A DNA stretch of 64,000 bases from Massilia rhizosphaerae (GTDB lineage: Bacteria > Pseudomonadota > Gammaproteobacteria > Burkholderiales > Burkholderiaceae_D). Under the pieces are notes generated by a model. The model saw nothing but the letters and a program-made list of their open reading frames with translations, did not search any database and was not told where the DNA came from. Where the stretch lies: assembly GCF_016093545.1 (NCBI RefSeq), contig NZ_JADKYX010000004.1, positions 372,001-436,000 on the forward strand. Reading direction: 5' to 3'. Position numbers and translations under genes: made by a program. Each line of letters starts with the position of its first letter. Positions within the stretch are counted from its first letter, which is position 1. Shown here one piece after another: positions 15,113-59,871 of the stretch.

Positions 15113-15133
15113 CAGAATCGCGAGACAAACATC

Positions 15134-16201: not shown

Positions 16202-17271
16202 TCCGCCTCCCGGTCCGGTTGCCGTTCCCGCGTGCGCTCGTGCGCACGTTCGTGCCCGCGCTGGCGCTGGCCTTCACGGCCGCGCAGCTCTGCATCTTCC
16301 TCGACACGCCGCTGCCGTGGATGATCGGCCCGCTGTTTTCCACCGCGCTCGCCTGCATGCTGGGCGCGCGGCTGGCGGCGCCCGTGCAGGCGCGCGAAGC
16401 GGGGCAGTGGGCCATCGGCACCGCGCTGGGCCTGTACTTCAGCGCGCCCGTGCTGGCCGCGCTGGCCCGTAACCTCGGCTGGATCCTGCTGGCCGTCTCG
16501 TTCGCCGTCTGCCTCGGCATGCTCGGCGGCGCGCTGCTGCGCCGGCTGTCCGGCAGCGACGAGGCGACGGCGTTCTTCGCGATGGCCGTCGGCGGCGCAT
16601 CCGAGATGGCCGTGCAGGCCGAACGCCACGGCGCCGTCGTCGAACGCGTGGCGGCCGCGCACAGCCTGCGCATCATGATGGTGGTCGGCACCATCCCGTT
16701 CGTGGTGCGCTGGCTCGCCGCGCACGGCTGGGGCAATGGGCTCGACACGTTCGTGCCGCTGGCGGGGCGCGTGGATGCCGCCGGCCTCGCCGTGCTGATC
16801 GCGCTGACGGCAGGCGCCGCGCTGGTCCTGAAACGCGTGCGCCTGCCGAACGCCTGGGTGATCGGCCCGCTGATCGTCGCGCTGATGCTGACGGCGGCCG
16901 GCGTGCAGCTTTCGCGGCTGCCGGAATGGATGATCCGCACGGGCCAGCTGTTCATCGGCGTGTCGCTCGGCACGCGTTTCACGCCGCGCTTCGTGCACAC
17001 GGCGCCGCGCTATCTCGCCAGCGTGGCCGCGTGCACGCTCGTCACCTTGCTGCTGGCCGGGCTGTTCGCGTTCGGCGTGGCCGGCATCACCGGCATGCAT
17101 CCGGGGACGATGGTGCTGGCCACGTCGCCCGGCGGCATCGCGGAGATGGCGTTGACGGCCCGCGTGCTGCACCTGGGCGTGCCCGTCGTGACGGCGTTCC
17201 ACGTGGCGCGCATGGTCGTCGTCGTGCTCGCGATCGGCCCGTTGTACCGGGCGTGGAGCCGCGTCGCCTGA
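16189..17271 (+). CDS. AbrB-family transmembrane protein (duplicated AbrB/MtnX-type domain)
   Basis: About 360 aa, some ten hydrophobic segments in two related halves: LDTPLPWMIGPLFSTALACML in half one (shown as two pieces: LDTPLPWMIGPL, FSTALACML) and RLPNAWVIGPLIVALML in half two, plus GGASEMAVQAERHGA and SPGGIAEMALTARVL. This is the AbrB/COG3180 ammonia-monooxygenase-like family, often encoded beside TctC-type carboxylate genes; transport function is suspected but undefined. No ATG exists near the N-terminus; TTG 16189, overlapping the ATPase stop by 13 nt, is my best start, with CTG 16198 or a later GTG possible. Confidence 0.75.
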   Translation: MGVLIRLPVRLPFPRALVRTFVPALALAFTAAQLCIFLDTPLPWMIGPLFSTALACMLGARLAAPVQAREAGQWAIGTALGLYFSAPVLAALARNLGWILLAVSFAVCLGMLGGALLRRLSGSDEATAFFAMAVGGASEMAVQAERHGAVVERVAAAHSLRIMMVVGTIPFVVRWLAAHGWGNGLDTFVPLAGRVDAAGLAVLIALTAGAALVLKRVRLPNAWVIGPLIVALMLTAAGVQLSRLPEWMIRTGQLFIGVSLGTRFTPRFVHTAPRYLASVAACTLVTLLLAGLFAFGVAGITGMHPGTMVLATSPGGIAEMALTARVLHLGVPVVTAFHVARMVVVVLAIGPLYRAWSRVA

Positions 17272-17437
17272 CCCGGCGCGGGTGACGCGGTCTGCGACTC
17301 GATGCGGCGCGGTCGCGTATTCAGTCCCTTCGGGTAGCGGAATGCGCGACCATTGATTCACGCCCAGCAACCTCGTATGTTCAATGCGCCAGTTGTGATG
17401 TAGATTGTCGCTTCGTTCACAATCCGTTTCGACGAGC

Positions 17438-19333
17438 ATGAGCCACCCGAACCACCCCAGCCAGTTTGCCCTGCTGACCCAGCGCCGCTTCGGCCCGTTC
17501 TTCTGGACCCAGTTCCTGGGCGCCTTCAACGACAACCTGTTCAAGACGGCGCTGCTCGTCGTGCTGACCTACGACGCGCTGGCCTGGACGACGGTGCCCG
17601 CCGCGCTGCTGAACAACCTGATCCCCGGCCTCTTCATCCTGCCTTACGTCGTGTTCTCCGCCACCGCGGGCCAGATCGCGGACAAGGTCGAGAAGGGCCG
17701 GCTGGCGCGCTTCGTCAAGGTGCTGGAAATCGTCATCATGGGCATCGCCGCCGCCGGCTGGCTCACGCACACCCTGTGGCTGCTCGTCGCCGCCATCGCC
17801 GGCATGGGCGTCCACTCGACGCTGTTCGGCCCCGTCAAATACGCCTACCTGCCGCAGCACCTGAAACCGGAAGAACTCGTGGGCGGCAACGGCGTCATCG
17901 AAATGGGCACCTTCGTCGGCATCCTGCTGGGCGAAGTGATGGGCGCGATCCTTGCGGGCCACGGCGCGGCCGGCGTGCACCTGGTCGCGTTCGGGACGCT
18001 GGCGGTCGCGGTGCTGGGCCTCGTCACGAGCTGGCGCATCCCGACGTCGCCCGCGCCCGCGCCCACGCTCAGGATCAGCGCGAACTTCATCGCGGAATCC
18101 GTGCGCAACATCGGCTACTCGCGCAAGAACCGCACGGTGTTCCTGTCGATGCTGGGCAATTCCTGGTTCTGGTTCTACGGCGCGCTCGTGCTGTCGCAAT
18201 TCCCGCTGTACGCCAAGGACTACCTGCACGGCGACCACAGCGTGTTCGTGCTGCTGCTGACGATCTTCTCGCTGGGGATCGGCGCCGGCTCGCTGCTGTG
18301 CGAAAAGCTCTCGGGCCGCAAGGTCGAAATCGGCCTCGTGCCGTTCGGCGCCATCGGCCTGTCGCTGTTCGGCATCGACCTGTACTTCGCGAGCCTCGGC
18401 TACACCAACACGGCCCCCGTCGATTTCGTCGACGTGCTCGCGCAGCACGGGACGCTGCGCATCCTCGCCGACATCCTGCTGCTGGGCGTGTTCGGCGGCT
18501 TCTTCATCGTGCCGCTGTTCGCGCTGATCCAGACGCGCTGCGACCCCGCCCACGTCTCGCGCACCATCGCGGGCATGAACATCCTGAATGCGCTGTTCAT
18601 GGTGGCGTCGGCCGGCGTGGCCGTCTTCCTCATCAAGCGCGGCTTCAGCATCCCCGAGATGTTCCTGACGACGGCGCTGCTGAACGCCCTCGTCGCCGTC
18701 TACATCTTCTCGCTGGTGCCGGAATTCCTGATGCGCTTCCTGGCCTGGCTGCTGATCCACACGATCCACCGCGTGTCCACCGTGGACGTCGAACGCATCC
18801 CGGAAGAGGGCGCCGCGGTCCTCGTCTGCAACCACGTGAGCTACGTGGACGCCATCGTCATCCTGGCCGCGAGCCCGCGCCCGATCCGCTTCGTGATGGA
18901 CCACCGCATCTTCAGGACGCCGCTGCTGGGCTTCATCTTCCGCACCGGCAAAGCGATCCCGATCGCGCCGGCCCACGAGGATCCGTGGCTGATGGAGAAG
19001 GCCTTCGTCGACGTCGCGCAGGCGCTGCACGAGGGCGAACTCGTGTGCATCTTCCCGGAAGGGAAACTGACGCGCACGGGCGAGATGAACGCATTCCGCG
19101 GCGGCATCGCCAAGATCGTCGAACGCAGCCATGTGCCCGTAATCCCGATGGCGCTGCGCGGGCTGTGGGGCAGCGTGTTCTCGCGCGACTCGTCGAACGT
19201 GTTCGAGCGCTCGTTCGCGCGCGGGCTGCGCTCGCGCCTGGCGCTGGCCGTCGGGCAGCCGGTGCCGCCGCAGGAGGTCACGCCGGAAGGGTTGTACGAG
19301 GAAGTGCTGGCCTTGCGCGGAGACTGGAAGTAA
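17438..19333 (+). CDS. Fused MFS transporter-acyltransferase (LplT-PlsC type)
   Basis: 631 aa. Residues 1-400 form a 12-helix MFS domain beginning FGPFFWTQFLGAFNDNLFK, typical of the lysophospholipid transporter LplT. Residues 430-630 are a PlsC acyltransferase with the H-x4-D motif (CNHVSYVDA) and FPEGKLTRTG. The protein would flip lysophospholipid across the inner membrane and re-acylate it. It is a natural domain fusion seen in many proteobacteria. Start at ATG 17438 (MSHPNHP) is preferred over an in-frame TTG at 17405. No neighbour on the same strand; tRNA-Pro follows 68 bp downstream. Confidence 0.88.
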   Translation: MSHPNHPSQFALLTQRRFGPFFWTQFLGAFNDNLFKTALLVVLTYDALAWTTVPAALLNNLIPGLFILPYVVFSATAGQIADKVEKGRLARFVKVLEIVIMGIAAAGWLTHTLWLLVAAIAGMGVHSTLFGPVKYAYLPQHLKPEELVGGNGVIEMGTFVGILLGEVMGAILAGHGAAGVHLVAFGTLAVAVLGLVTSWRIPTSPAPAPTLRISANFIAESVRNIGYSRKNRTVFLSMLGNSWFWFYGALVLSQFPLYAKDYLHGDHSVFVLLLTIFSLGIGAGSLLCEKLSGRKVEIGLVPFGAIGLSLFGIDLYFASLGYTNTAPVDFVDVLAQHGTLRILADILLLGVFGGFFIVPLFALIQTRCDPAHVSRTIAGMNILNALFMVASAGVAVFLIKRGFSIPEMFLTTALLNALVAVYIFSLVPEFLMRFLAWLLIHTIHRVSTVDVERIPEEGAAVLVCNHVSYVDAIVILAASPRPIRFVMDHRIFRTPLLGFIFRTGKAIPIAPAHEDPWLMEKAFVDVAQALHEGELVCIFPEGKLTRTGEMNAFRGGIAKIVERSHVPVIPMALRGLWGSVFSRDSSNVFERSFARGLRSRLALAVGQPVPPQEVTPEGLYEEVLALRGDWK

Positions 19334-19383
19334 TTGCCATGATGCTTCATGACAAAAGGGCTAGTCATCCGGTCTGCCTCTGT

Positions 19384-19389
19384 TATAAT
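19384..19389 (+). promoter_or_regulatory. -10 element of the tRNA-Pro promoter
   Basis: A perfect TATAAT sits 12 bp before the tRNA 5' end, followed by a G/C-rich discriminator. No good -35 box is visible at 16-18 bp. Confidence 0.55.
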
Positions 19390-19401
19390 TGTGGCCCGAG
19401 T

Positions 19402-19480
<79 letters not shown>

Positions 19481-19494
19481 AGAATCATAGAGTT

Positions 19495-19520
19495 AGGCCA
19501 GCTTCTCAGCTGGCCTTTTT
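19495..19520 (+). terminator. Rho-independent terminator after tRNA-Pro (phage-borne)
   Basis: GGCCAGCT/AGCTGGCC stem (19496-19515) with TCTC loop followed by five T. A near copy with TTCG loop follows attR at 59911, so the element carries its own replacement for the tRNA terminator. Confidence 0.85.
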
Positions 19521-19534
19521 CTTTGGTGCCGGAA

Positions 19535-19587
19535 TTACCCCAACATTTACCCCTACAGTTTTTACCCCTACAAATTATCCCCCTACG
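19535..19587. promoter_or_regulatory. Integrase arm-type sites, left end
   Basis: TTACCCCTACA occurs at 19547-19557 and 19562-19572, with variants TTACCCCAACA at 19535-19545 and a looser ATCCCCCTACG near 19577-19587. The same 11-mer is found twice beside attR (59673, 59685). Repeats flanking both att cores inside the element are the expected arm sites of the P4-type integrase. Confidence 0.7.
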
Positions 19588-19807
19588 CCCGGGTGTCATT
19601 CGATTGCGTGTTACCTTGGCCCGCCGCGTTGATCTGCTTCTGCTGCCATTCCGCGATGGCGTCGGAGTCCCAGGCGACCGAGCGCGCGCCAATCCGGAGC
19701 GGGGCGGGGAACGTGCCGCCCTGGATGTCGCGATAGATCGCGGTGCGCGACTTACCGACCCGTTCGATGACGGCCGGCAGGCGCAGGAAACGTTTTGGTG
19801 CATTCAT
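19583..19807 (-). CDS. AlpA-family DNA-binding protein, probable excisionase
   Basis: 74 aa, start at 19807 with AGAGG upstream. The AlpA/HTH_17 pattern is clear: RFLRLPAVIERVGKSRTAIY, DIQGGTFPAPLRIGARSVAW and DAIAEWQQ. Such proteins bend DNA as excisionases or activate integrase genes. It is the last gene of the leftward operon and lies against attL and the arm sites, which fits a role in excision. Its 5' end overlaps the preceding HTH gene by 56 nt. Confidence 0.85.
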   Translation of the reverse strand: MNAPKRFLRLPAVIERVGKSRTAIYRDIQGGTFPAPLRIGARSVAWDSDAIAEWQQKQINAAGQGNTQSNDTRA

Positions 19808-20156
19808 CTGTTGCCTCTTTAAATTTCGTTATCAGCGTGCGCAGTGCTGCCACTTCGTGTTCTAGTGCTGCGATGCGTCTTTCGAGATCCTCTTTGCTTT
19901 CGCACCTTGACCTCTGGCCTCGCGGTTTTGCGCTTTCGCGGGACTGTGTGACCAGCGCCGCTTCCTCGTCTGGTCTTACTGCCGGAAGCAGGGTGCTCGT
20001 GCCGATCAGCCGGTCAATGCTGGAGCCCGTGATACGTGTCGCGCTGCCGATCCTCACCAGCTCAAGGTCGCCGCGCTTCGCCATGCGGTAAATCGTCGCG
20101 CGACATACGCCCAGCCGCTGCATGACTGTCGCCACCTTGTACAGTTTCTGTTCCAT
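19752..20156 (-). CDS. HTH (excisionase-family) DNA-binding protein with coiled coil
   Basis: 134 aa from ATG 20156 (MEQKLYKVATVMQRL). Residues 5-50 form a MerR/AlpA-type winged helix (GVCRATIYRMAKRGDLELVRIG), residues 85-115 a predicted coiled coil (EDLERRIAALEHEVAALRTL). A longer reading frame exists upstream, but its extra 59 residues are arginine/proline rich and overlap another gene, so I use the internal start. A second DNA-bending or regulatory protein beside the excisionase; exact role unknown. Confidence 0.7.
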   Translation of the reverse strand: MEQKLYKVATVMQRLGVCRATIYRMAKRGDLELVRIGSATRITGSSIDRLIGTSTLLPAVRPDEEAALVTQSRESAKPRGQRSRCESKEDLERRIAALEHEVAALRTLITKFKEATDECTKTFPAPAGRHRTGR

Positions 20157-20469
20157 TCTGCTCTCGCAATTCCGCCGCAGGACCAGCGCCGGTCTTCTGC
20201 GTAACCTGCGCATTTTTGCTGCTCCTGCAGGTTTGTGGCGCTCCTTCGGATTTAGGTGCGTCGTGCACCTCTTGCACAGCCGGGGGCAGCGGTGCGGCCG
20301 GATGGGCATCAACCGCTCCGGCGCCGCCCGCACGCGCCACCGCCCACTGTCGACGGATGATGTTCGCGTTTAGTACGTCGCCGACATCCTTGTAGCGCTT
20401 CACGATCGCGGCGTAGTCGGCATCGCTGATGTGCAGGGCGACGTTGTGGCTCTGCTCGGATTGACTCAT
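20062..20469 (-). CDS. Hypothetical phage protein
   Basis: 135 aa, MSQSEQSHNVALHISDADY, starting with an ATGA overlap of the upstream gene stop, which supports the start. The N-terminal half looks protein-like; the C-terminal half is low complexity and overlaps the next gene by 95 nt in another frame. No family recognised. Confidence 0.5.
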   Translation of the reverse strand: MSQSEQSHNVALHISDADYAAIVKRYKDVGDVLNANIIRRQWAVARAGGAGAVDAHPAAPLPPAVQEVHDAPKSEGAPQTCRSSKNAQVTQKTGAGPAAELREQNGTETVQGGDSHAAAGRMSRDDLPHGEARRP

Positions 20470-21113
20470 TTCGACGTGCCCCCGTTCGACCCTTGATCTT
20501 GGTCACGAGCAAGCCAGCCCATCCACGCATATGCCGTCACGAGGTTGATGTACGAGCGATCCTTGCGGGTCAGATCAAACTGACGTGGCCCGACATGCGC
20601 CTCAAACCGCAGGCGGGCGGCTTCAGTTGCGGGCCCGTTCTCGAGCCTGACCAACTCGTCGTTCTTGCGTGGCTTAACCGGCTTCTCAGGTACTACCTCC
20701 CCAGCCTCGTCCTGCGTCTGCCCCATGGCGAGCACCCTGATTGCGTTGCTGTAGGTGGCGAGACCCCAATACACACCATTTCGAAAATATCGGCGGTTGT
20801 GCTTTGCCCCTTCGGCCTGTCGCAGTTCCGGCAGGAGGGTATAGGCCTTGATCAGTGCAGCGCGCTCGATGGCGCGAGCAAAACCGGTAACGTCACCGAT
20901 GGCGTCCGGCATGTGCTTTTCTGCGAATGCGCTAATCTCGTTGGGGGTAAGTGCGCCGATTCGCTCACCATATCCCTCGCTCCCCTTGCTGTATTTCCAT
21001 TGCGCGCGCACGTCTTTCGCGGCTTCAATGTTGCCCGCTTCGCTGTGGCGCCACATCTCCCTTGCGAACGTCATGTCGCTCACGTTAGTAGCTTGGCTGC
21101 GTTCACTCATCAT
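20466..21113 (-). CDS. Hypothetical phage protein
   Basis: About 215 aa from ATG 21113 (or 21110), overlapping the end of the DUF1566-XRE gene by 11 nt and the next start by ATGA. The sequence (MTFAREMWRHSEAGNIEAAKD, a conserved-looking ERAALIKAYTLLPELRQAEG and SYINLVTAYAWMGWLA) is soluble and mostly helical. I do not recognise a family. It belongs to the leftward, presumably lysogenic-stage or early operon. Confidence 0.65.
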   Translation of the reverse strand: MMSERSQATNVSDMTFAREMWRHSEAGNIEAAKDVRAQWKYSKGSEGYGERIGALTPNEISAFAEKHMPDAIGDVTGFARAIERAALIKAYTLLPELRQAEGAKHNRRYFRNGVYWGLATYSNAIRVLAMGQTQDEAGEVVPEKPVKPRKNDELVRLENGPATEAARLRFEAHVGPRQFDLTRKDRSYINLVTAYAWMGWLARDQDQGSNGGTSK

Positions 21114-21948
21114 CGGCGCCCATGAGCCAGTTGGCATCGAGATTGAGAACTGAGCACACATTTGCCAGATCTGGGCCTTGAATGGTGCGCTCCTGCCCTG
21201 TCTCCCACTTGACGATCTCATCCAACGGTACGCCGGTCAGTTCGGATAGCCGATCACGCGTTACGCCAGCTGCTTCGCGCGCAGCTTTGATATGCGTTGG
21301 CCAGTTCACGACAACGGACGGCTCGAAGCCGGCGAAAAGTCGGCGCACAACACGTGCGCGATTTGGACTGTCGACCGAATCCCAGTCGCGGACAGGCTCG
21401 TCGCAGAAGTCGAGGTAGAGCGCCTCCTGCCGATTCAGCCATTCGCTCGACCAAAACGCATCCTCACCAGTGAATTGGTCGCGAAGGTTCTGCCAGAGGA
21501 CGTCGTGATCATCGATGTTCGGCAGTTCGCCTCCGACAGCGGCCGCGAACGTCTTCGCCTGCTGCCAGGTCACTTGGTGGGCCTCAGCTGGCAGTAGGAT
21601 GAGATGGCGATAGATCCCGCCGTCGCGCACGACTCCGGCGTAGAGTTCGCCTGGCTGTAGCTCGGCCTGGTCAAACGTGAACTCAGGCATCGGCACCGGG
21701 TCCGGCCGCACGATCTTGGGCAGCATGCCAACACATTGCATAATCATCCCATGTGTCGTCGCGTCGAGAGCGTTGTGGCTTACCGCTTGCGTTCCCGCTT
21801 TAGCGGCGACGGGTGATGTGGGAATTCGCGCATCACTACGGGATGCCATCTGGTGCATGGCGCCGGCGCGCGCTGCTGTATCGTTGGCCTCGCGCTGCGC
21901 TGAGAGGTCGGCCATGCGACTCGTGTTGGTCGTCTTTTTGGTGCCCAT
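21103..21948 (-). CDS. DUF1566-like / XRE helix-turn-helix fusion protein
   Basis: 281 aa, ATG 21948 with AAGGA. Residues about 95-205 resemble DUF1566 (Lcl C-terminal) as found in Burkholderia/Ralstonia phages: GELYAGVVRDGGIYRHLILL, GGELPNIDDHDVLWQN, FWSSEW and a terminal ARVVRR. Residues about 220-280 are an XRE HTH: IKAAREAAGVTRDRLSEL, VPLDEIVKWETG. The first 90 residues are low complexity. DUF1566 proteins are common as single-domain phage genes; joining one to a DNA-binding domain suggests a regulator with a sugar- or protein-binding input. Function unknown. Confidence 0.7.
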   Translation of the reverse strand: MGTKKTTNTSRMADLSAQREANDTAARAGAMHQMASRSDARIPTSPVAAKAGTQAVSHNALDATTHGMIMQCVGMLPKIVRPDPVPMPEFTFDQAELQPGELYAGVVRDGGIYRHLILLPAEAHQVTWQQAKTFAAAVGGELPNIDDHDVLWQNLRDQFTGEDAFWSSEWLNRQEALYLDFCDEPVRDWDSVDSPNRARVVRRLFAGFEPSVVVNWPTHIKAAREAAGVTRDRLSELTGVPLDEIVKWETGQERTIQGPDLANVCSVLNLDANWLMGADDE

Positions 21949-21991
21949 GTTCGGTCCTTCAGGTTGATTGTTATGATGGTTCGGCTCGCGA

Positions 21992-22264
21992 TCAGCGGGA
22001 TACCAGCGTCAAGCGCACTGGCTCGGCCGGCAGGGTGCAGCTGTACTGCGCGGCGAGGTCAACGATCATCTGCTGGGCGCAGTCTTTCATCGACCGGAAG
22101 TTGGCGATCAGTTGGCGTTCGTCGGCCGTAAGATGAAAATCGACGCTCTCGACGATGCGGATATCTCCGCGGCCGCGCTCGCGGGCTTCGATCGGGCTCA
22201 ATACGTTGCGGGAGCTCTCCGTTGCGCTGGACGTTGCGTCAGTGCTACTATTACGATTCGCCAT
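21992..22264 (-). CDS. Hypothetical phage protein
   Basis: 90 aa, start MANRNSSTDATSS at 22264 chosen because GGAGA lies 7 nt upstream. Serine/threonine-rich N-terminus, then a region DFHLTADERQLIANFRSM that looks helical. Nothing recognised. Part of the leftward operon between the antirepressor and the DUF1566 fusion. Confidence 0.6.
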   Translation of the reverse strand: MANRNSSTDATSSATESSRNVLSPIEARERGRGDIRIVESVDFHLTADERQLIANFRSMKDCAQQMIVDLAAQYSCTLPAEPVRLTLVSR

Positions 22265-22369
22265 AGTTTTCTCCAAAAGGTTATGGGCGTAAGGGGCCAT
22301 CCGACGCGTGCAAGACGTCGGGTGGCTTCGTTGTTTTCGGGACTGCGGACGAAACTCGTACGCAGTCGG

Positions 22370-23191
22370 TTACTGAATCAATCGACCCTGCTGCTGGGGC
22401 TGCGGCGTGCCGAGCATCTCCGCGAGCTTGGTTATCCCCTTGCTGGTGACTAGAACCTGGGCGCTTTGTTTGCGCTCGCCGGTTTCCGGATCCTGGTAGT
22501 TGCCGTACTTGTGCACCAAGTTGCCGGAGTGGATCTGCGGCTGATAGGCGACGTATCCGCCTTTGCCCGTGCGGGGGTACATCCACTTCTTCTGCAGCAG
22601 GAAATCGCGGAGCTTGTGCGGGCCTATCTGCAGGTGTTTGGCCGCATCCGTGATACAGAAAGCTTCGTCGACGTCGGCAATTCGTTCCAGCGCTGCCGCG
22701 GCCGGTGCCAGTGCGGCAACCTGATGTTCGAGCTGCTCAGCCCGGGCCGATTGCGCGCGCTCCTCTTTCTTTGCTGCAATCCATGCCTCCGCCATGGCGA
22801 TCGGATCATCGAAGTTCGGCGTGTTCGACATGGCACGCGCGGCGAGCTCTTTGCGCATCTCCGAGAAAGCTCGAACAAGAGCAATTTTGAACTGCCGGAC
22901 GATCATGTTGTTTCGCATGTAGGTGATCAGCAGCGTGGCCTGATCCTCGTTCAGCAGCGCGATCTCGCGTTTTTGCTGACCACCAGCAGTCTCAAAGGGT
23001 TCGATTTCAAATCGGACCCTTCCAAACTCCTCGAAGTCCTTCTGATGGGTGCGCACCAGCTTGATGACCGCCTCGTGCGTGTTGGCGGTGCCGGAAGCAA
23101 TAGCCGTCGTTGTCGTTACGAGCTCGTCACCGTGGACGATGACCAGACCGGTCGACGTCAGGGTAGGCACTGCTTGCTGTGGTGCGTTCAT
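22370..23191 (-). CDS. Rha family regulator / phage antirepressor with KilAC domain
   Basis: 273 aa from ATG 23191 (GAGG upstream). Residues about 15-115 match the pRha domain (LVIVHGDELVTTTTAIA, THEAVIKLVRTH, DFEEFGRVRFEIE, LLNEDQATLLITYMRN); residues about 180-270 match KilAC (DAAKHLQIGPHKLRDFLLQK, GYVAYQPQIHSGN, VLVTSKGITKLAEM). Rha interferes with lytic growth in hosts lacking IHF, and KilAC antirepressors inactivate repressors. It is the first gene of the leftward operon and has its own strong promoter at 23230-23257. Confidence 0.88.
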   Translation of the reverse strand: MNAPQQAVPTLTSTGLVIVHGDELVTTTTAIASGTANTHEAVIKLVRTHQKDFEEFGRVRFEIEPFETAGGQQKREIALLNEDQATLLITYMRNNMIVRQFKIALVRAFSEMRKELAARAMSNTPNFDDPIAMAEAWIAAKKEERAQSARAEQLEHQVAALAPAAAALERIADVDEAFCITDAAKHLQIGPHKLRDFLLQKKWMYPRTGKGGYVAYQPQIHSGNLVHKYGNYQDPETGERKQSAQVLVTSKGITKLAEMLGTPQPQQQGRLIQ

Positions 23192-23223
23192 CGTTGCCTC
23201 ATCAAGGTATTGCATCAAGTTGA

Positions 23224-23290
23224 GATAAGTCTATAAGCACAATAAGTCACTTGTCAATAAGTTTCGCGCGTTAGCTTATTTTTTCTTATC
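23224..23290 (-). promoter_or_regulatory. Leftward promoter with ATAAG operator cluster
   Basis: Minus strand: TTGACA (complement of 23252-23257), 16-bp spacer, TATAGA (complement of 23230-23235). The promoter is covered by repeated boxes: ATAAGT at 23225, ATAAG at 23233, AATAAGT at 23241 and 23256, and the inverted forms CTTATT at 23275 and CTTATC at 23285. Similar ATAAG/CTTAT boxes recur in the repressor-cro gap, suggesting sites for the phage repressor. Confidence 0.6.
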
Positions 23291-23299
23291 GTCGCGGGT

Positions 23300-23325
23300 A
23301 AAAATAAAGCGCACATCAGTGCGCT
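23300..23325 (-). terminator. Rho-independent terminator of the repressor gene
   Basis: Stem GCGCAC/GTGCGC (23309-23324) with a 4-nt loop; on the minus strand it is followed by TTTATTTTT. It separates the repressor transcript from the leftward antirepressor operon. Confidence 0.75.
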
Positions 23326-23346
23326 CGGTGCGGCTCTATGACGGCC

Positions 23347-24117
23347 CTATTTTGTTTCTTGAGAAGTTGACGCCGCTTCTAAGTCTGCAATCGCTTTAGC
23401 GGCCTCCTCTGCAGAATCGACGACAAGCAGTCGGACTCCAACCAAATTTGCCTCCGCCGTAAGCTTAGCGAGCCTTCGCTCAAACGATGGTAGAGCGTGG
23501 CTGGGAAGGGGGCCGAGGAGCGGTCGGCGAACGACAACGACGTAATTCTTTCCTGGACCCAGGAAGGAGCGAAGCACGACTTGCTGAAAGAGTGCCATGG
23601 TGACGGGCGCCTCAATCCCATAATATGAGCCGGGATGCTTCACCTCGATTATTGTACGTTGAGTAACATAGTCGACAACCCATTGGCTAAGATCAGAGCC
23701 TCCGCCTATCGTTACATGGGATTTAAGTGTGGGATCTAGCCGCTGCAGGGCCTGGGCAAGAGTCTTGTCGAAGTCCCCCGCCTTAGCCATGTGCTCTGCG
23801 ACGAGCAAGCGAGACCTAATCTCCTCTGGAGAAAACATGTCAAGTTGCACAACAGAAGATGTGGGCGGAGCTTCGGAGTTGCTGCTCCTCTCGGCCAACT
23901 CATCCTTAGGTGAGAACTCTATATCTGAGCGAAATGATTCGTCAAACAGGTTCGCCATCAAATGGATGTACTTGATGCGAGGCAGTGTTGTGCCACGTTC
24001 CCATTGTCCCACTGCAGCTTGGGAGACGCTTAGCATCCCCGCCAATTCAGCTTGACTTATGCCTTTGCGATTCCGTGCCTCACGGATGGCATCGCCGACA
24101 GGTTTCTTTATCGTCAT
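23347..24117 (-). CDS. Phage repressor: XRE HTH with PD-(D/E)XK-like C-terminal domain
   Basis: 256 aa from ATG 24117. Residues 7-60 are a classic XRE/CI HTH (IREARNRKGISQAELAGMLS, SQAAVGQWERGTTLPRI). The C-terminal part does not show the S24 peptidase motifs of LexA/CI repressors. Instead residues 143-190 read as a restriction-nuclease-like core: D149 (QWVVDYV), then IIEVK with E158 and K160, followed by a helix with FQQV and the strand NYVVVVRR. Position (divergent from a Cro-like gene, terminator behind) says it is the maintenance repressor. No ribosome site precedes the ATG, so it may be leaderless as many CI messages are. Whether the nuclease fold is catalytic or a sensor/oligomerisation module is open. 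Confidence 0.8.
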   Translation of the reverse strand: MTIKKPVGDAIREARNRKGISQAELAGMLSVSQAAVGQWERGTTLPRIKYIHLMANLFDESFRSDIEFSPKDELAERSSNSEAPPTSSVVQLDMFSPEEIRSRLLVAEHMAKAGDFDKTLAQALQRLDPTLKSHVTIGGGSDLSQWVVDYVTQRTIIEVKHPGSYYGIEAPVTMALFQQVVLRSFLGPGKNYVVVVRRPLLGPLPSHALPSFERRLAKLTAEANLVGVRLLVVDSAEEAAKAIADLEAASTSQETK

Positions 24118-24256
24118 GAGTACAATGAGTTGGTTGTGGTTTGTGGAGTATAAGCTAAACCACGACTGTCGAGAAGTGCTTCTGATCAAATCTTATAATC
24201 TTCTTGCTCAACTACTCGCAACTTGTTACTATCTGTCCAACGAGGAAGGAGGAGCA
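24118..24256. promoter_or_regulatory. Repressor-Cro divergent control region
   Basis: Rightward promoter candidate TTGCTC-17 bp-TACTAT before the Cro-like gene. Leftward -10 TATACT (complement of 24148-24153) for the repressor. An inverted repeat GTGGTTT/AAACCAC (24136-24142, 24157-24163) is centred on that -10, and a second AGAAG/CTTCT dyad lies at 24172-24183. ATAAG and CTTAT boxes recur at 24149 and 24191. These are good operator candidates. Confidence 0.55.
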
Positions 24257-24493
24257 ATGGACGAGCAGCAAGATATGTCCGGAATTGCATTGGCCGTGAA
24301 GAAGGCTGGTACGCAAGAAAAGTTGGCCAAGAACTTAGGGGTCTCGCAGCAGGCTATCAGCCAGTGGATCGAACAGGGCTGGGTTCCTTTGCGACGCGCT
24401 GCCCAGATTGAGCAGTGCTTTTCGATCCCGCGAACGAGACTAGTCGATCCGAGAATTGTTGAACTGGTCATAGCGCCGACCCAAGCGACGTAA
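24257..24493 (+). CDS. Cro/YdaS-like antirepressor protein
   Basis: 78 aa; ATG 24257 with an excellent GGAAGGAGG site. HTH pattern IALAVKKAGTQEKLAKNLG, SQQAISQWIEQGWVPLRRA followed by IEQCFSIPRTRLVDPRI is typical of YdaS/Cro-type phage regulators. Divergent from the repressor; first gene of the rightward early operon. Confidence 0.85.
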   Translation: MDEQQDMSGIALAVKKAGTQEKLAKNLGVSQQAISQWIEQGWVPLRRAAQIEQCFSIPRTRLVDPRIVELVIAPTQAT

Positions 24494-24584
24494 TTTACCA
24501 AACGTTTCCCCTGAAACGCCTCCGCTAACCCGGCAGGCGCAGGGACTCTTTACGCCTAAATTTTGACGCATCCATAGGACAACC

Positions 24585-25298
24585 ATGCAGACCACCAAAC
24601 AAACGACAGGGATGGGCGCCCGCATACTGCAGGCGGTTGCTAACGGCGCCTTCTGCGACGATGGGCGTGCAATCACTTCATTCGCGCTCGTTCGACACTT
24701 CGTTCGTGAGAACTACAAGACCACGAACGACAGGTTGGCGCAGCTCCGGCGCGCTCGCCGACAGGCAAAGATGCTGGGAGACTCCCCGTTCAATAAACAC
24801 CGCCAGTCCGCAATGCAAAAGCACATCGAGTCTCTTGAGGCGTGCTGGCAGTCGGGGCGTGACTGCCAGAAGGGTCTGGGCCGCATCATCATTGATATGG
24901 CCCCGAGGATCGATGCTCAAACCACGATGGCCCAGCGTCTTGAGCTACTCAACTGCAATCCTGCAGACCGGTCCGACTTGGACGAGCCAGATATCGGCTT
25001 GGTCAATCTGATCGCCGTGTACTGCGTGGAGGACTCGGCGGCGTACCGAGGCGATGAGTTCAATGACCGGCCGCTGTTCAACGCCGTCAACGCAGAGATC
25101 ATGCGCGTGATGTTCAAGACGCCTGAAGGGCGGGCAGCGTCGGAAAAGATCTTCGACGAGGCCTTCGCACCTGGCGGAATCTTCCACGGCGTGCCGACCT
25201 ACTACCGCCAGTCTGACGGGACGATGAAGCGCAAGGCGCCGTCGCTGGTACTGCATGACGCCTCGGGCTCCCGCGTCATCGAGCGCACACCTTCGTAA
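24585..25298 (+). CDS. Hypothetical phage early protein
   Basis: 237 aa, MQTTKQTTGMGARILQAVANG. Helical, soluble, with basic segment RLAQLRRARRQAKML. Lies between the Cro-like and replication genes. The 90 bp upstream contain a small CGTTTC/GAAACG hairpin (around 24502-24517) but no T run. No family recognised; a role in early DNA metabolism is only a guess from position. Confidence 0.65.
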   Translation: MQTTKQTTGMGARILQAVANGAFCDDGRAITSFALVRHFVRENYKTTNDRLAQLRRARRQAKMLGDSPFNKHRQSAMQKHIESLEACWQSGRDCQKGLGRIIIDMAPRIDAQTTMAQRLELLNCNPADRSDLDEPDIGLVNLIAVYCVEDSAAYRGDEFNDRPLFNAVNAEIMRVMFKTPEGRAASEKIFDEAFAPGGIFHGVPTYYRQSDGTMKRKAPSLVLHDASGSRVIERTPS

Positions 25299-25317
25299 TC
25301 AACAAGGAACATTCAGC

Positions 25318-26190
25318 ATGGCCAGGATTCGTTCTATCAAACCTGAACTCCCGCAGTCGGAGAGCATGGGCAACGTCTCGCGAGATGCGCGGCTGACGTT
25401 CATTCAACTTTGGACGCTGGCCGATGATGAAGGGAGGCTTCGCGGGAATTCGCGAATGCTCGCGAGTCTTCTTTTTCCCTATGACGACGGTGAAGACGGG
25501 CATGCGCTGACCACTGCAAAGGATGTCGAGAGGTGGCTGGTCGAGCTCGAACGCGAAGGGTGCATTGTGCGCTACCAGATCGATGGTGCAGCCTACATGC
25601 AGATCTGTAACTGGTTGATTCATCAGAAGATTGACAAGCCGAGCAAGTCGAAAATCCCGCCATTCGATGAATCCTCGCGAATCCTCGCGAAGCCTCGCGA
25701 AGTGTCGTCGGAGGAGGGGATCAAGGATCAAGGAGAGGAAGGGAAGGGAGAGGATCAATTTGTCGAGCGCCGCGGCGCGTCGCACGACGTCGATGTCGTG
25801 AAGACGATTTTTGAGTACTGGCAAAAAATCATGGTCTCGCCACGCGCCCAACTGGACGACAAGCGCAAGAAGGCGATCAAGACCGCACTCAAACTCTACG
25901 AACCGCGCCAACTGTGCGAGGCTATTCTTGGCTGTTCGAAATCGGACTTCCATATGGCTCGAGGCGAGTATCTCGGGCAGCAGAAGCACAACGGTCTCGG
26001 CCTGATTTTTCGTGATGCCGATCACATCGATAAGTTCATCGGCCTGGCGAGCAAGCAGGCCACCGGCCCCGAAAGCATCGAGCAGCGGAACGCCAGGATC
26101 CTGGCCGAACTGATGGCCGAGGACGCGACTTCCGCCATTGATCCAGACGTGATCGACGTCGACATGGAGGAGGTCGAACATGCGTCCTGA
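25318..26190 (+). CDS. Phage replication initiation protein (O-like, winged-helix)
   Basis: 290 aa; ATG 25318 (AAGGA upstream). The N-terminus MARIRSIKPELPQSESMGN and DARLTFIQLWTLADDEGR are hallmarks of phage replication proteins with a DnaD/O-type winged helix that bind the phage origin. The middle (125-150) is an acidic linker, and the C-terminal half (VDVVKTIFEYWQKIM, KTALKLYEP, GLIFRDADHIDKFIGLA) is a DnaT/DnaD-like domain. The next gene overlaps by 11 nt. Family recognised with good confidence; biochemical role by homology. Confidence 0.82.
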   Translation: MARIRSIKPELPQSESMGNVSRDARLTFIQLWTLADDEGRLRGNSRMLASLLFPYDDGEDGHALTTAKDVERWLVELEREGCIVRYQIDGAAYMQICNWLIHQKIDKPSKSKIPPFDESSRILAKPREVSSEEGIKDQGEEGKGEDQFVERRGASHDVDVVKTIFEYWQKIMVSPRAQLDDKRKKAIKTALKLYEPRQLCEAILGCSKSDFHMARGEYLGQQKHNGLGLIFRDADHIDKFIGLASKQATGPESIEQRNARILAELMAEDATSAIDPDVIDVDMEEVEHAS

Positions 26191-26959
26191 GGACAAACCA
26201 CAGTTCGCCGCTTTGCTGGCTGAAGTATTGGCTGGCTACGGCAAGCCGCTGCCCGAAAAGGCCGAAATCAACATCTGGTTCAGCCAACTGGCGCCGTTCC
26301 CGCCATCGACGATCAAGATGGCCTTTGAGGCGTACCGCGTCGAGCGTCCGGACTTCGCTCCAGTCCCCAACGGCATCGCCGCCAGGTGCAAGCTGCAGGA
26401 CGGCCGGCCCGACGAGAACGAAGCTTGGGCCGTGGCCCTAACCAGCCAGGATGAGCGTGAAACGGTCGTGTGGACGAGCGAGATGGCTGAGGCGTTCACG
26501 GTGGCCCGCCCGCTGCTGACAACTGGCGACGAGATCGGTGCGCGGATGGCGTTCAAGGATGCCTACAAGCGGCTGATGAACGAAGCACGCGCGCTCAACA
26601 GGCCGGTAAGTTGGGCGGTGTCGGCCGGATGGGATGCAGAGCGTCACCAACTCGCGGTCCAGAGGGCAATAACGGCGGGGCTTCTACCGGCACCGGAACC
26701 GCATCTGGCCCTGCCGAACGACTCCGGGATAGCCGACCAGAAGCCGGTAGGCTTGCAAAAGCTTCTTGAAGCGGCGGCGCAACTGGAGGATCCGCGAGCG
26801 AAAGCCGAGCGGTTGCACGAAGCGCGATTAGTCGAGGAGGAGAATGCGGATCGTGAGCGTCGCCGCGCGCTGGACGAGAGGGTTCAAGCCTATCTGCGCC
26901 AGCATCCTGATGCCCGCTACGGTGAACTCTTGGCTCCCACAAGGCAGGGGAAGCGATGA
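26180..26959 (+). CDS. Phage replication-associated protein (P-like), putative
   Basis: 259 aa, MRPEDKPQFAALLAEVLAGY. The central stretch NEAWAVALTSQDERETVVW, AEAFTVARPLLTTGDEIGAR, MAFKDAYKRLMNEAR is a conserved-looking module that I associate with genes following O-like initiators in Burkholderiales phages. The C-terminus is charged and coiled coil. It may load helicase or assist the initiator. Overlaps both neighbours (11 nt upstream, ATGA downstream). Confidence 0.65.
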   Translation: MRPEDKPQFAALLAEVLAGYGKPLPEKAEINIWFSQLAPFPPSTIKMAFEAYRVERPDFAPVPNGIAARCKLQDGRPDENEAWAVALTSQDERETVVWTSEMAEAFTVARPLLTTGDEIGARMAFKDAYKRLMNEARALNRPVSWAVSAGWDAERHQLAVQRAITAGLLPAPEPHLALPNDSGIADQKPVGLQKLLEAAAQLEDPRAKAERLHEARLVEEENADRERRRALDERVQAYLRQHPDARYGELLAPTRQGKR

Positions 26960-28005
26960 GCGCGAACCTCTTCAAGGTCGGCGATGTCTGGCACTACCGC
27001 TTTCAGGTGGTCGGGCAGCGAGTCCAGCGCAGCACACGGCTGAAAAATCGGCGCGCGGCCGAGCAATTGGCCCAGCGGGAATATGACGCCGCGGTCACGC
27101 GCGCCAACGGTGGCCAGCCTGTGCCGACACTCGACGAACTGGCGCATTCGTGGATCGTGGTGCATCGGCCGGTGACCAGCGCCGCGCACATCCGAACCGT
27201 TGAGGCATTCCGGCGCCTGCACATGTACGACCTGGGCGGCAAACGCATCGACAGCATCACGACGGCCGACGTCGAGGTGACGCGCAACCAGCACCTGCAG
27301 GGCCGCAAGCCGGCGACGGCCAACCACTGGCTCAGGATCCTCAAGTTGTTGACGATGTGGGCGGTCAAGCGCGGGACCATCGCGAGCTGCCCCTGGAGGG
27401 TGAGCATGCTGAAGGTCCAGAAACGCCCGCGTGCCATCCTGCCGCTCGACGTGGCCCGCGCATGGTTCGATGCGGTCGACGGTGCCACGAAGCGCACGCC
27501 GGCCATTGGCACCGCAGTACGCTTGATGTTCGGCCTGGGCCTGCGCGAGGGCGAGTCGACGTCGGCGCGCTGGGAGTGGATCGACTGGCAGCGCGGGACC
27601 TACACGCCGGGCATCACGAAGGGCAGGGAAGCGGAGCCGGTGCCGATGCCGTCGTGGCTGCGCGAGCACCTTGAGCTGCGGCGTCAGTCGCATGGGCTGA
27701 TCGTCGCGAAGGAGGATGGGCAGGCATTCGCGCCAGGGTTCGCCCGCCAGGCGATGCGCACCGCGAACGCGGCGTGTTCGGTCCGCGGCATCACGCCGCA
27801 CCGCTTGCGCGGCACGTTCGCGACGCTGCTGTCCGAGGCCGGCGTGCCAGTGCAGACCATCCAGCGCGTGATGCGCCATAAGAGCCATGTGACGACCATG
27901 GCGTATCTGGAGAAGAACCTCGACGTGGCCGCGCGAGCCCAAGAGCAGATTAGCTCGTGGGCAGGGCTTGTTCGCGCGACGAATTCAAGCGCTGATCGCA
28001 CTTGA
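26956..28005 (+). CDS. Second tyrosine recombinase (phage integrase family)
   Basis: 349 aa, starting with an ATGA overlap of the replication gene. N-terminal core-binding region (about 55-155, TLDELAHSWIVVHRP) and a catalytic domain with Arg in MFGLGLREGEST, H-x-x-R in TPHRLRGTFATLL, a second His box MRHKSHVTTMAYLEKN with the nucleophilic Tyr in MAYLE. All catalytic residues are present. It is a different subfamily from the DUF4102 integrase near attR and sits far from either att site, inside the replication operon. A role in dimer resolution or in an alternative integration event is possible. Confidence 0.88.
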   Translation: MSANLFKVGDVWHYRFQVVGQRVQRSTRLKNRRAAEQLAQREYDAAVTRANGGQPVPTLDELAHSWIVVHRPVTSAAHIRTVEAFRRLHMYDLGGKRIDSITTADVEVTRNQHLQGRKPATANHWLRILKLLTMWAVKRGTIASCPWRVSMLKVQKRPRAILPLDVARAWFDAVDGATKRTPAIGTAVRLMFGLGLREGESTSARWEWIDWQRGTYTPGITKGREAEPVPMPSWLREHLELRRQSHGLIVAKEDGQAFAPGFARQAMRTANAACSVRGITPHRLRGTFATLLSEAGVPVQTIQRVMRHKSHVTTMAYLEKNLDVAARAQEQISSWAGLVRATNSSADRT

Positions 28006-28013
28006 ATGCTATG

Positions 28014-28715
28014 TCATCCAACCTGAAGGGTGCAGGCCTCGACAAACGATCGTCCGAGAAGCGTGGGGTTCACGCGGGTGAAAATCTCTCCGCCCCCAAA
28101 CGATTTTTGGATCACCAGACATCCAAGCCTTGCTAAATTTGCGAGCGCAAGCTTCACCTCATCGGGGGGCTCAGTTAGATGATCCTGATTGCCGTCCTTT
28201 CCAACTGCGACGGATTCCGGAAGATGGCCGACTTCGACCCCTTCATGGCGAGTTTCGTCATATGGAAGTGAATAGATTTTCTCCAGAACCGCCGCTTCTA
28301 GAGGAGTGATCTGCTCCAAAATGGCGATATATGCTCGTTGCAGAGTTAGCGGACTCCTGTCATTTGAGGCATTGACGAGCAGGCGCGCCCAAAGATCCTG
28401 CAAGTGGTCGTCTTCTTCCAATGAAGCGGCTTCCAGTAGCGGAACTGCTAGGTTGAGTGGAATCGCGCGTGTCGGCGCGGATAGCCCTGCCTCACATTGC
28501 AGTTGTCGTGCGCGTTCCATAAGCCTGACCTGGCGCTCCCAGCGCATGTATTTGAGCTTGTCTTCCCAAATCCCCATGCCCTGCTCAATTGGCCCAGCAA
28601 CGTATCTTGCGATAAATCCACCGAACTTAGTTGTCGCGTCAATGGCTTTGCCGGTGGCTTCGGCCACCGCTTTTACGGCCTCCGCCGTTTGAGAAACAGG
28701 GTTGTCATCACTCAT
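28014..28715 (-). CDS. Abi-alpha (DUF4393) family abortive-infection protein
   Basis: 233 aa, ATG 28715 with GGAG. The central motif LNLAVPLLEAASLEEDDHLQ and DLWARLLVNASND is diagnostic for the Abi-alpha/DUF4393 family. The N-terminus is a long helix with a glycine-rich amphipathic segment (FGGFIARYVAGPIEQGMGIW), then basic residues. Single gene on the strand opposite to its neighbours, with its own promoter region and a palindrome upstream: the usual form of a lysogenic-conversion gene. Likely excludes competing phages while the prophage is resident; mechanism unknown. Confidence 0.85.
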   Translation of the reverse strand: MSDDNPVSQTAEAVKAVAEATGKAIDATTKFGGFIARYVAGPIEQGMGIWEDKLKYMRWERQVRLMERARQLQCEAGLSAPTRAIPLNLAVPLLEAASLEEDDHLQDLWARLLVNASNDRSPLTLQRAYIAILEQITPLEAAVLEKIYSLPYDETRHEGVEVGHLPESVAVGKDGNQDHLTEPPDEVKLALANLARLGCLVIQKSFGGGEIFTRVNPTLLGRSFVEACTLQVG

Positions 28716-28740
28716 TAAATACTCCGAAGTTCAGGGTGTG

Positions 28741-28761
28741 AGCGCTGCACGATGCAGCGCT
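28741..28761. promoter_or_regulatory. Perfect palindrome upstream of the Abi-alpha gene
   Basis: AGCGCTGCA-CGA-TGCAGCGCT, 9-bp arms, 26 bp before the start codon. On the minus strand a weak promoter (CTGGCC-17-TACACT) precedes it, so the palindrome would lie in the leader: an operator or an RNA hairpin. Confidence 0.6.
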
Positions 28762-29025
28762 AAGTTGCTCTAGTGTACTCGTGCATCAGAGGATGGCCAG
28801 GATAGCGAAAAATTTGCGGCAGAGATGGCGCAAAATTGGCGAAGTGCATTGAGCCGCGCCTGTAAATCCAAGCACTCCGAATGATAAAGAGTCATCGGAT
28901 GTTTAGCTGGCTTTCGCGGCGGGCGTGCAAGCACGCAACAGATTGCGATTTGGAAAATGTCGGAACAGCAGCCGAACTAACTGTTGAGTGGTAATCTCCC
29001 ACCTGATTTTTCCTCGGAGAAAACC
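28762..29025 (+). promoter_or_regulatory. Gap between Abi-alpha and the Q-like gene
   Basis: With the leader of the Abi-alpha gene this makes about 310 bp without a gene. It holds two similar A-rich boxes (GCGAAAAATTTGCG near 28805 and GCAAAATTGGCG near 28829) and the GGAG site of the next gene. I see no convincing promoter. Confidence 0.3.
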
Positions 29026-29571
29026 ATGGGCTTTGCTGATCGCTATATCCACTCGCTGAGTGCATCGAACCTTAAGGACGATGAGCGCCACCATCAGACC
29101 GAGCCGTTGATGGCTTCCGCGTTTGCGGTGGCCAACTTAACCGGCGACCTGGGCCCGCTGCTGCATCGTGTGAAGTTCGCCGACAGCACTGCTCGTTCGG
29201 CCTTCGAAGGCAATGCCGGCAACCTGGCCCAGTTGCTGCGCTTGTGGACGGCCGAGGTAACGAAGCGCGGCCGCGCGCGTCGTTGGGTTCCTGAGAACAC
29301 TGCTTGGGACGCTGATGCAGCCCAGAAGCTTTACCGCGCCGTGGCCGAGCATTCGCTTGCCTATTGGCTGGACGGAAAATGCGATTCTTGCGGCGGCACC
29401 GGCGTCGAGCAGGCAAGAGCATGCAGGTGCTGCGGCGGAACCGGCAAAGCTGAGCTTACGATGGCGGCCGGCTTCGTCCGTGAGCATACGCTCGATATGG
29501 TGAGTGAGCTGCACAACATCGCCGACAACCATGCGGCGCGAGCTGCATCCAAGCTGCGCCGATCAGGTTGA
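29026..29571 (+). CDS. Q-like late antitermination protein with zinc finger
   Basis: 181 aa; ATG 29026 with CGGAGA upstream. The C-terminal third contains a DnaJ-like double CxxCxGxG zinc site: C119/C122 in KCDSCGGTG and C133/C136 in CRCCGGTG. The N-terminal part is helical. Placement after the replication genes, before terminators and the late operon, is that of lambda-type Q antiterminators of the zinc-finger class. DNA or RNA polymerase contact is inferred from family and position. Confidence 0.72.
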   Translation: MGFADRYIHSLSASNLKDDERHHQTEPLMASAFAVANLTGDLGPLLHRVKFADSTARSAFEGNAGNLAQLLRLWTAEVTKRGRARRWVPENTAWDADAAQKLYRAVAEHSLAYWLDGKCDSCGGTGVEQARACRCCGGTGKAELTMAAGFVREHTLDMVSELHNIADNHAARAASKLRRSG

Positions 29572-30001
29572 GCAACATGATGCAAATTGCTGTGTAAACA
29601 TCCAGCAATTTCGTGTAAACTGTAGACCTACATTCTTCCGGCCTCGTAATGCGCGGGAAACCGTCACCGATAACCGGAACTCGCGACAGCACCCAGCCAT
29701 TGAGTGCCGTCGCTCGTTCGTACAGAACGTAATAGCCCGCCACTTTGCAGATAGCTCTGGGCGCGACCCAAGCCCCCGCCTCGCTCGAGGCTGGGCAACC
29801 TAATTTCTCTTTGGCCTCACGAATCGAGGCGCCACACAAAGCCTAAGCCTGACAAACACGCTTCACGTGCGCGGACGACGGCTGCGGGCTCTGTGTGGTA
29901 GGCGTCGCCCCAAATGCGGCCCCAGTATCTGCCCCGACTAAGCTGCTGGGGAGGGCGCCGCCTACCGCAACCTGTCTCCTCCAAGTCTCTCTTGGACTTT
30001 G
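29572..30001. other. Leader region between Q-like gene and first late terminator
   Basis: 430 bp with no convincing gene. It should hold the late promoter and the Q-utilisation site. I cannot point to a strong -35/-10 pair. Two short inverted repeats are visible (GCCTCGCTCGAGGC near 29776, AGGCGTCGCC near 29902). A 127-aa minus-strand frame crosses it but looks like noise. Confidence 0.4.

Positions 30002-59821: not shown

Positions 59822-59871
<50 letters not shown>

What the first reader, a model, noticed from the sequence alone, without database searches (positions are those of the whole stretch)
23347..24117. CI-position repressor with a PD-(D/E)XK nuclease-like domain instead of S24 peptidase
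HTH repressors normally respond to RecA through an S24 domain. Here the C-terminal part has D149, then E158-x-K160 after a turn and hydrophobic strands and a helix as in the restriction-enzyme fold. A repressor that senses, binds or cuts DNA ends would be a new form of lysogeny switch: damage could be read directly, or the domain could defend against invading DNA.
Basis: partly seen in the sequence, partly recalled or inferred. Interest (0 to 1): 0.75.

Follow-up and report, generated by a model that had tools for sequence, protein, structure and literature searches.

The report
Prophage repressor with nuclease-like C-terminal domain
A prophage's presumed main repressor carries, where textbook repressors have the part that responds to DNA damage, a domain predicted to be shaped like a restriction-type nuclease; most relatives found have lost a residue needed for cutting, so the domain probably serves as a non-cutting control part and the prophage is probably switched on in another way than the textbook one.

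Summary
The gene (window 24117-23347, minus strand, 256 aa) encodes an Xre/HTH_3 protein with D149, E158 and K160 as stated, in the CI position of a ~40 kb prophage, divergent from a Cro/YdaS-like gene; no S24 domain was found in the window. No profile library matches its C-terminal domain meaningfully. AlphaFold predicts alpha-beta3-alpha-beta (pLDDT 84); the 20 best PDB fold matches are PD-(D/E)XK-fold proteins, though none reaches E 1e-3. A 21%-identical homologue gives a similar model.

The nuclease reading is weaker. Among 11 confident family members the aspartate is kept in 10, an acidic second residue in 9, but the lysine and the full triad in only 3, this protein among them; the nearest homologue lacks E and K. 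So the domain most likely acts as a non-catalytic assembly and control module. Release by a neighbouring antirepressor rather than RecA is my inference: such a gene was found near 6 of 11 members. Catalysis in this member is not excluded. Closest precedent: archaeal COG1395. New variant of a known kind.

The parts
23347..24117 (-). Presumed repressor gene: N-terminal Xre/HTH_3 domain (residues 11-62), linker, C-terminal domain of predicted PD-(D/E)XK fold (about residues 106-256)
   Evidence: translation, Pfam, structure prediction and fold search
23350..23802 (-). C-terminal domain as modelled: alpha-beta-beta-beta-alpha-beta core plus alpha-beta-alpha; D149 and E158/K160 on neighbouring strands
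24257..24493 (+). Divergent Cro/YdaS-like gene, 78 aa; 51-53% identical to the counterparts in three relatives
   Evidence: Pfam YdaS_toxin and P22_Cro on the enclosing ORF; alignment
24118..24256 (.). Repressor-cro intergenic region with an inverted repeat (24133-24142 / 24157-24166) and two ATAAG words; presumed operator region
   Evidence: function inferred
23307..23326 (-). Terminator-like hairpin behind the repressor gene
   Evidence: 2 overlapping sites found in 23200-24600, 1.2 expected
23225..23289 (.). Six ATAAG/CTTAT words over the promoter-like site before the antirepressor-like gene; the densest cluster in the window (32 copies in 64 kb)
22370..23215 (-). Antirepressor-like gene with Phage_pRha and KilAC (ANT) domains
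   Evidence: Pfam PF09669 and PF03374; PHROG anti-repressor Ant
19583..19807 (-). AlpA-like small protein (name recalled, not scanned against profiles) at the end of the same leftward gene block; 52-64% identical in three relatives
19431..19480 (.). Left attachment repeat in the 3' half of tRNA-Pro (19402-19478); copy at 59822-59871, 49 of 50 identical

Best explanation
The gene encodes the lysogeny (CI-type) repressor of the prophage. Its N-terminal Xre helix-turn-helix binds operators between itself and the Cro-like gene, and probably over the promoter of the antirepressor gene. Its C-terminal domain descends from a PD-(D/E)XK nuclease and has been reused as a mostly non-catalytic module for assembly and control. 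Because there is no S24 domain to be cleaved with RecA's help, lytic growth is most likely released by the neighbouring Rha/KilAC-type antirepressor acting on the repressor. Shown here: the gene, the HTH, gene order, the lack of catalytic residues in most relatives, no S24 found. Predicted: the fold. Inferred: repression, operator binding, assembly through the domain, release by the antirepressor.
For: HTH_3. Fold: model pLDDT 84.3 and PD-(D/E)XK-fold proteins (my knowledge of the entries) in 20 of the first 20 PDB matches; a second model, of a 21%-identical homologue, has the same order of elements, and both models' BFVD searches place A0A6J5P0W0, a phage protein annotated as HTH_XRE, in the first three. 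All 3 relatives that were found through the protein or its domain (P0003, P0004, P0005) stand divergent from a Cro/YdaS-like gene; the 7 others were found through that gene, so for them it is so by construction. Lysine in 3 of 11, changing at least 3 times on the tree. Antirepressor-like gene near 6 of 11 members. S24 found only outside the window. No LexA-box-like site with at most 1 mismatch between 14973 and 29589.
Against: Fold matches are moderate (best PDB E 1.8e-3; TM by query 0.32-0.52 in the first 20). Three members, two of them (P0001 and P0005) only 21% identical, keep the complete D-x8-E-x-K, which a purely structural role would not require. In the other 5 of 11 members no antirepressor was found by tblastn with four known ones in about 2.1-2.3 kb behind the repressor (L086, L092, L097, and L089 and L099, which carry the same proteins as L088 and L098). 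ATAAG, enriched in the first loci, was not enriched in seven further members, so no family-wide operator is shown. The fold of these seven was not modelled. No binding or induction data exist.
Confidence: 0.5

Rival explanations
1. The window's protein is an active, HTH-guided nuclease as well as a repressor: on damage or superinfection it binds or cuts DNA, either reading damage directly or attacking incoming DNA that carries its operators.
For: Complete D-x8-E-x-K in P0001, P0004 and P0005, in P0001 placed on neighbouring strands of the model; P0001 and P0005 are only 21% identical, so the triad has been kept or regained over long divergence. HTH plus nuclease is a known plan in NaeI (described in PMC1189080, section 15).
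Against: 8 of 11 confident members lack the lysine and the nearest homologue also lacks the glutamate, yet stand beside the same Cro-like gene. No PADLOC match of the C-terminal domain of P0001 or P0005, one weak one for P0004 (NsnC, E 0.011).
Confidence: 0.15
2. The nuclease-derived pocket is a sensor: a nucleotide, metal ion or DNA end bound at the D149/E158 pair changes repressor assembly and triggers induction without RecA.
For: Aspartate kept in 10 of 11 and an acidic second residue in 9 of 11 while the lysine is in 3: a pattern expected if the pocket still binds something. Card1 and Cdn1, in which this fold is joined to a nucleotide-sensing part (recalled), are among the matches.
Against: The aspartate may be structural; P0003, L098 and L097 each lack one of the two acidic residues. 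No ligand is known.
Confidence: 0.15
3. The fold match is superficial: the domain is another small alpha/beta sandwich used only for assembly, and the D/E/K motif is coincidence.
For: No PDB match at E 1e-3 or below; other alpha/beta folds (glycosyltransferases, universal stress proteins) mix in from rank 21 on. No Pfam, PHROG or NCBIfam match to the domain at a meaningful E-value.
Against: The first 20 PDB matches are of one superfamily by my knowledge; two models of distant homologues agree; D-x8-E-x-K falls on the expected strands and recurs in a member only 21% identical.
Confidence: 0.14

Closest known systems
COG1395 / PAB2104 archaeal putative regulators (PMC1189080, section 15 read)
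   Same: An HTH_3 (Xre) domain joined to predicted PD-(D/E)XK-fold domains in a protein annotated as a transcription regulator, one of the domains having lost its active site.
   Different: Archaeal; described as PD-(D/E)XK, HTH, inactivated PD-(D/E)XK. Here the order is HTH then one such domain, in the CI position of prophages.
Lambda/P22-type CI repressors with S24 (LexA-like) domain
   Same: N-terminal HTH (P22 C2 is among the PDB sequence matches), place divergent from a Cro-like gene, presumed repression of the lytic promoter.
   Different: No S24 domain found, hence no self-cleavage route of that kind.
TP901-1 CI (start of abstract seen in a search listing only, PMC4941734)
   Same: Repressor with an N-terminal HTH and a C-terminal oligomerisation domain; it has an antirepressor, Mor (start of abstract of PMC11149083).
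   Different: Its C-terminal domain is not, as far as I recall, of nuclease fold.
Catalytically dead XPF-family partners ERCC1, EME1, FAAP24 (recalled; such structures appear)
   Same: Nuclease fold kept after loss of the active site, used for pairing and DNA binding.
   Different: Eukaryotic repair proteins, without an Xre HTH.
A0A6J5P0W0, HTH_XRE domain protein of an uncultured Caudovirales phage (BFVD)
   Same: 256 aa, HTH by its annotation, and the domain matched over 146 columns (TM 0.68 by query) at 13% identity.
   Different: Only its entry in the match list was seen; its sequence and neighbourhood were not available here.

Membership tests
PD-(D/E)XK nuclease superfamily (fold) | alpha-beta-beta-beta-alpha-beta core | tested here: met
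   Predicted, not solved, in two of 11 members (in the second model the strand with the aspartate is broken); fold neighbours
PD-(D/E)XK nuclease superfamily (active enzyme) | D and (D/E)xK on neighbouring strands | tested here: inconclusive
   Met in P0001 and 2 further of 11 confident members; lysine lacking in 8 of 11
PD-(D/E)XK nuclease superfamily (active enzyme) | metal-dependent cleavage | not testable with these tools
   needs an assay
Xre/CI-type prophage repressor | N-terminal HTH_3 | tested here: met
   PF01381 E 2.2e-12
Xre/CI-type prophage repressor | divergent from a Cro-like gene in the immunity region | tested here: met
Xre/CI-type prophage repressor | binds operators and keeps lysogeny | not testable with these tools
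   ATAAG clusters are suggestive only, and were not enriched in seven further members
S24/LexA-type CI | Peptidase_S24 domain | tested here: not met
   No match in the protein or in its C-terminal domain alone; the two S24 places found in the genome lie outside the window
COG1395 (PAB2104) regulators | PD-(D/E)XK, HTH, PD-(D/E)XK order | tested here: not met
   HTH is N-terminal and one such domain follows; NCBIfam PRK04140 (which I recall as COG1395) matches residues 8-87 only, 25.9 bits against a cut-off of 263

The most novel reading that the evidence does not exclude
A lysogeny switch whose repressor keeps a working or DNA-end-binding PD-(D/E)XK site, so that DNA damage or incoming DNA is read by the repressor itself without RecA.
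Probability: 0.13. Interest if true: 0.85.

Novelty: new variant of a known kind. Interest (0 to 1): 0.55.

Why it matters
How prophages without S24 repressors are induced is less well understood than the RecA route (established knowledge, not searched here beyond). Here a family of phage repressors, rare in the collections searched, has a nuclease-like domain in that place, with members from full triad to almost none of it. It gives matched pairs (for instance P0005 with the lysine and L093 without) for asking whether catalysis, ligand binding or mere assembly is the job, and it suggests a nuclease fold taken over for gene regulation in phages. The only counterpart that I came across in print is archaeal (PMC1189080); the searches behind that were made, in open-licence PMC full texts, of which I saw the capped listings and starts of abstracts.

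Tried and rejected
Sequence profiles for the domain: Pfam, PHROGs, NCBIfam, PADLOC and a PDB sequence search gave no meaningful match (best: PHROG E 0.022, unknown function; PADLOC NsnC E 0.011 for P0004).

Homologue hunts that failed: genome-contig scans with A2 and A4 (535 and 221 stretches matched a pattern, none encoded a relative); tblastn in phages and plasmids with the domain or a whole protein: no convincing match to the domain. One search has 7 matches at E 2 to 8, four of them annotated as PD-(D/E)XK nuclease at E 4, not used; one search's best is E 0.03. (P0003) matched 1015 records, none over 80% of the query; I did not examine them one by one. Viral scans with P0003, P0004 and P0005 gave itself, nothing, and three loci matched within residues 13-52. 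The scan with the full-length alignment A1 returned 49 loci, 48 of them aligned only within query residues 1-93. What worked was anchoring on the Cro-like gene.

LexA-controlled antirepressor: no site with at most 1 mismatch in 14973-29589; in the whole window 11 matches against 16 expected. Half-site ATAAG: chosen after looking. In five regions 14 against 2.4 in shuffles, 0 of 500 reach it; but the commonest word of any kind reached 8.3 on average and 16 at most in the same shuffles; in the four repressor-cro gaps alone 8 against 1.9, 0 of 500. In seven further members 2 against 2.25, so rejected as a family-wide operator.

Control on the anchor: of 53 Cro-anchored viral loci, 11 have a neighbour that matches the domain profile at E 0.001; 42 have none (other repressors, loci cut short, or relatives too remote; not sorted out).

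Rows dropped before counts: L089, L099 and L100 (identical to L088, L098, L098) and L084 (the contig of P0003) are counted once; L091, L102, L090 and L096 (E 0.026 to 8.9; L091 also cut) are left out of the 11; with them D is 12 of 15, acidic 12 of 15, K 3 of 15. L097 is kept at E 3.5e-4 for the whole protein (0.0014 for its best stretch). These E-values are for 85 ORFs only.

Full report
Check. The window holds, on the minus strand at 24117-23347, an ORF of 256 aa. Residues 11-62 match HTH_3 (PF01381, E 2.2e-12); no S24 domain is found in the protein or in its C-terminal domain alone. In the whole genome PF00717 has two places at E 0.001, C34:329683-330030 and C34:442131-442496, while the window is C34:372001-436000; so no S24 repressor was found in this prophage.

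Setting. The prophage is about 40.4 kb: a 50-base repeat, 49 of 50 identical, lies in the 3' half of tRNA-Pro (19431-19480) and at 59822-59871. It has a large terminase (70.6% identical to that of Burkholderia phage Bcep176), further genes that I read by eye as structural (translations, not scanned by profile), and integrase-family genes at 26956-28005 and 58206-59642. The repressor is transcribed away from a 78-aa Cro/YdaS-like gene (24257-24493). Behind it come a terminator-like hairpin (23326-23307), a promoter-like site, and a gene for a Phage_pRha plus KilAC antirepressor (22370-23215). Promoter-like sites in 23200-24600 were 4 against 1.0 expected, terminator-like ones 2 against 1.2.

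Fold. The C-terminal domain has no meaningful profile match. From a four-row alignment AlphaFold gave mean pLDDT 84.3 and pTM 0.81, elements H2-22 E27-32 E41-46 E50-55 H64-81 E86-92 H104-120 E124-128 H131-149; D149 is model residue 44 and E158/K160 are 53/55. Foldseek on the PDB: 829 matches up to E 10, none at 0.001 or below, 50 listed; the first 20 are XPF, Hef, Mus81-Eme1, FANCM-FAAP24, SfsA, Cdn1, Card1 and EndoMS, all PD-(D/E)XK-fold proteins by my knowledge; unrelated folds appear from rank 21. BFVD: 5 matches at 0.001 or below, the third being A0A6J5P0W0, annotated HTH_XRE, 256 aa; the other four are unnamed or uncharacterised. A second model, of the homologue P0005 (21% identical to P0001), gave pLDDT 74.7 and the same order of elements, though its second strand is broken next to the aspartate and residues 96-113 are under 50; its two best BFVD matches are A0A516KZK0 and A0A6J5P0W0 again.

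Relatives. By these searches the family is rare. Genome searches with the domain found, besides the window's own genome, G780 and G532 only; the largest single searches covered 399, 392 and 398 genomes, and these sets overlap. A search with the whole protein matched 20 of 101 genomes, all but the own one within residues 3-97, in effect the HTH. Two scans of genome contigs found none. IMG/VR gave P0003. Anchoring on the Cro-like gene gave 53 viral loci; among 85 ORFs on the opposite strand next to it, those of 11 loci match the domain profile at E 0.001 or below: 8 different proteins, of which P0003 was known. That makes 11 confident members; the seven new ones rest on the profile, not on models of their own.

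Active site. Among the 11: D149 in 10 (serine in L097); acidic at 158 in 9 (R in P0003, A in L098); K160 in 3 (P0001, P0004, P0005), elsewhere V, A, M, S, C, V, G, G. On a tree built without these three columns the lysine changes at least 3 times; only 3 of 8 inner branches are well supported, L092 is a long branch, and the count cannot tell loss from gain. The simplest reading is an ancestral nuclease site decaying several times while the repressor role stays. Hence cutting is unlikely to be the family's common function, although P0001 itself keeps the full set.

Regulation. The three relatives found by the protein or its domain share the order repressor, Cro-like (51-53% identical), AlpA-like (52-64%), and an antirepressor-like gene 0.9-1.9 kb behind the repressor (ORF6N in L082 and L083, which hold P0004 and P0005; a pRha match below its cut-off, 18.3 against 29.9 bits, in L021). 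L085 and L093 also have one (tblastn to the known ones). With the window this makes 6 of 11. For the other five (L086, L092, L097, and L088 and L098 with their identical copies in L089 and L099) tblastn with four antirepressors found none in the roughly 2.1-2.3 kb held behind the repressor; one further away is not excluded. In the window the word ATAAG occurs 32 times in 64 kb on both strands, six of these within 65 bases over the antirepressor promoter and two in the repressor-cro gap. In five regions there are 14 against 2.4 expected, 0 of 500 shuffles reaching it, while the commonest word of any kind reached up to 16 in those shuffles. Seven further members show no enrichment (2 against 2.25), so I read it as specific to this prophage and its nearest kin at best; the word was chosen after inspection. 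No LexA-box-like site with at most 1 mismatch lies between 14973 and 29589.

Mechanism. I commit to a repressor whose nuclease-derived domain is an assembly and control module, released by the antirepressor. Shown: gene, HTH, gene order, lack of catalytic residues in most members, no S24 found. Predicted: the fold. Inferred: repression, assembly through the domain, and antirepressor action. Rivals are an active nuclease, a ligand sensor, and a superficial fold match.

Known work. PMC1189080 (passages, and section 15) predicts for archaeal COG1395 an HTH_3 domain between an AHJR-like PD-(D/E)XK domain and a second, inactivated one, and mentions NaeI and TnsA as other HTH-nuclease fusions. Searches for a phage repressor with such a domain (open-licence PMC papers only; 20 of 40, 20 of 22, 7 of 7, 12 of 44 and 5 of 5 papers listed; titles and starts of abstracts seen) showed none; the full texts of the listed papers other than PMC1189080 were not read. 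I therefore rate it a new variant of a known kind.

Noticed in passing
28014-28715 (-): Abi_alpha (PF14337, E 3.6e-25) protein with weaker matches to PADLOC candidate PDC-S47: a likely prophage-borne abortive-infection gene.
   Followed up: partly
26956-28005 (+) and 58206-59642 (-): Two integrase-family genes in one prophage; the second lies at the right attachment repeat, the first behind the replication-like genes.
   Followed up: no
21103-21948 (-): A protein with an HTH_3 domain at its C-terminus (residues 220-275) and an N-terminal part without a Pfam match: an odd domain order for a regulator.
   Followed up: no
L090, L096, L102, L091: Further Cro-divergent repressor-like proteins whose C-terminal parts line up only weakly (L096 has D-x8-E-x-R); they may be remote members of the same family.
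   Followed up: partly
21992-22300 (-); L021 5922-6296; L085 618-1013; L093 182-739: A small gene near the antirepressor whose N-terminus reads alike in these phages (ending in TMAN; 58% identical over 26 residues between window and L022); function unknown.
   Followed up: no
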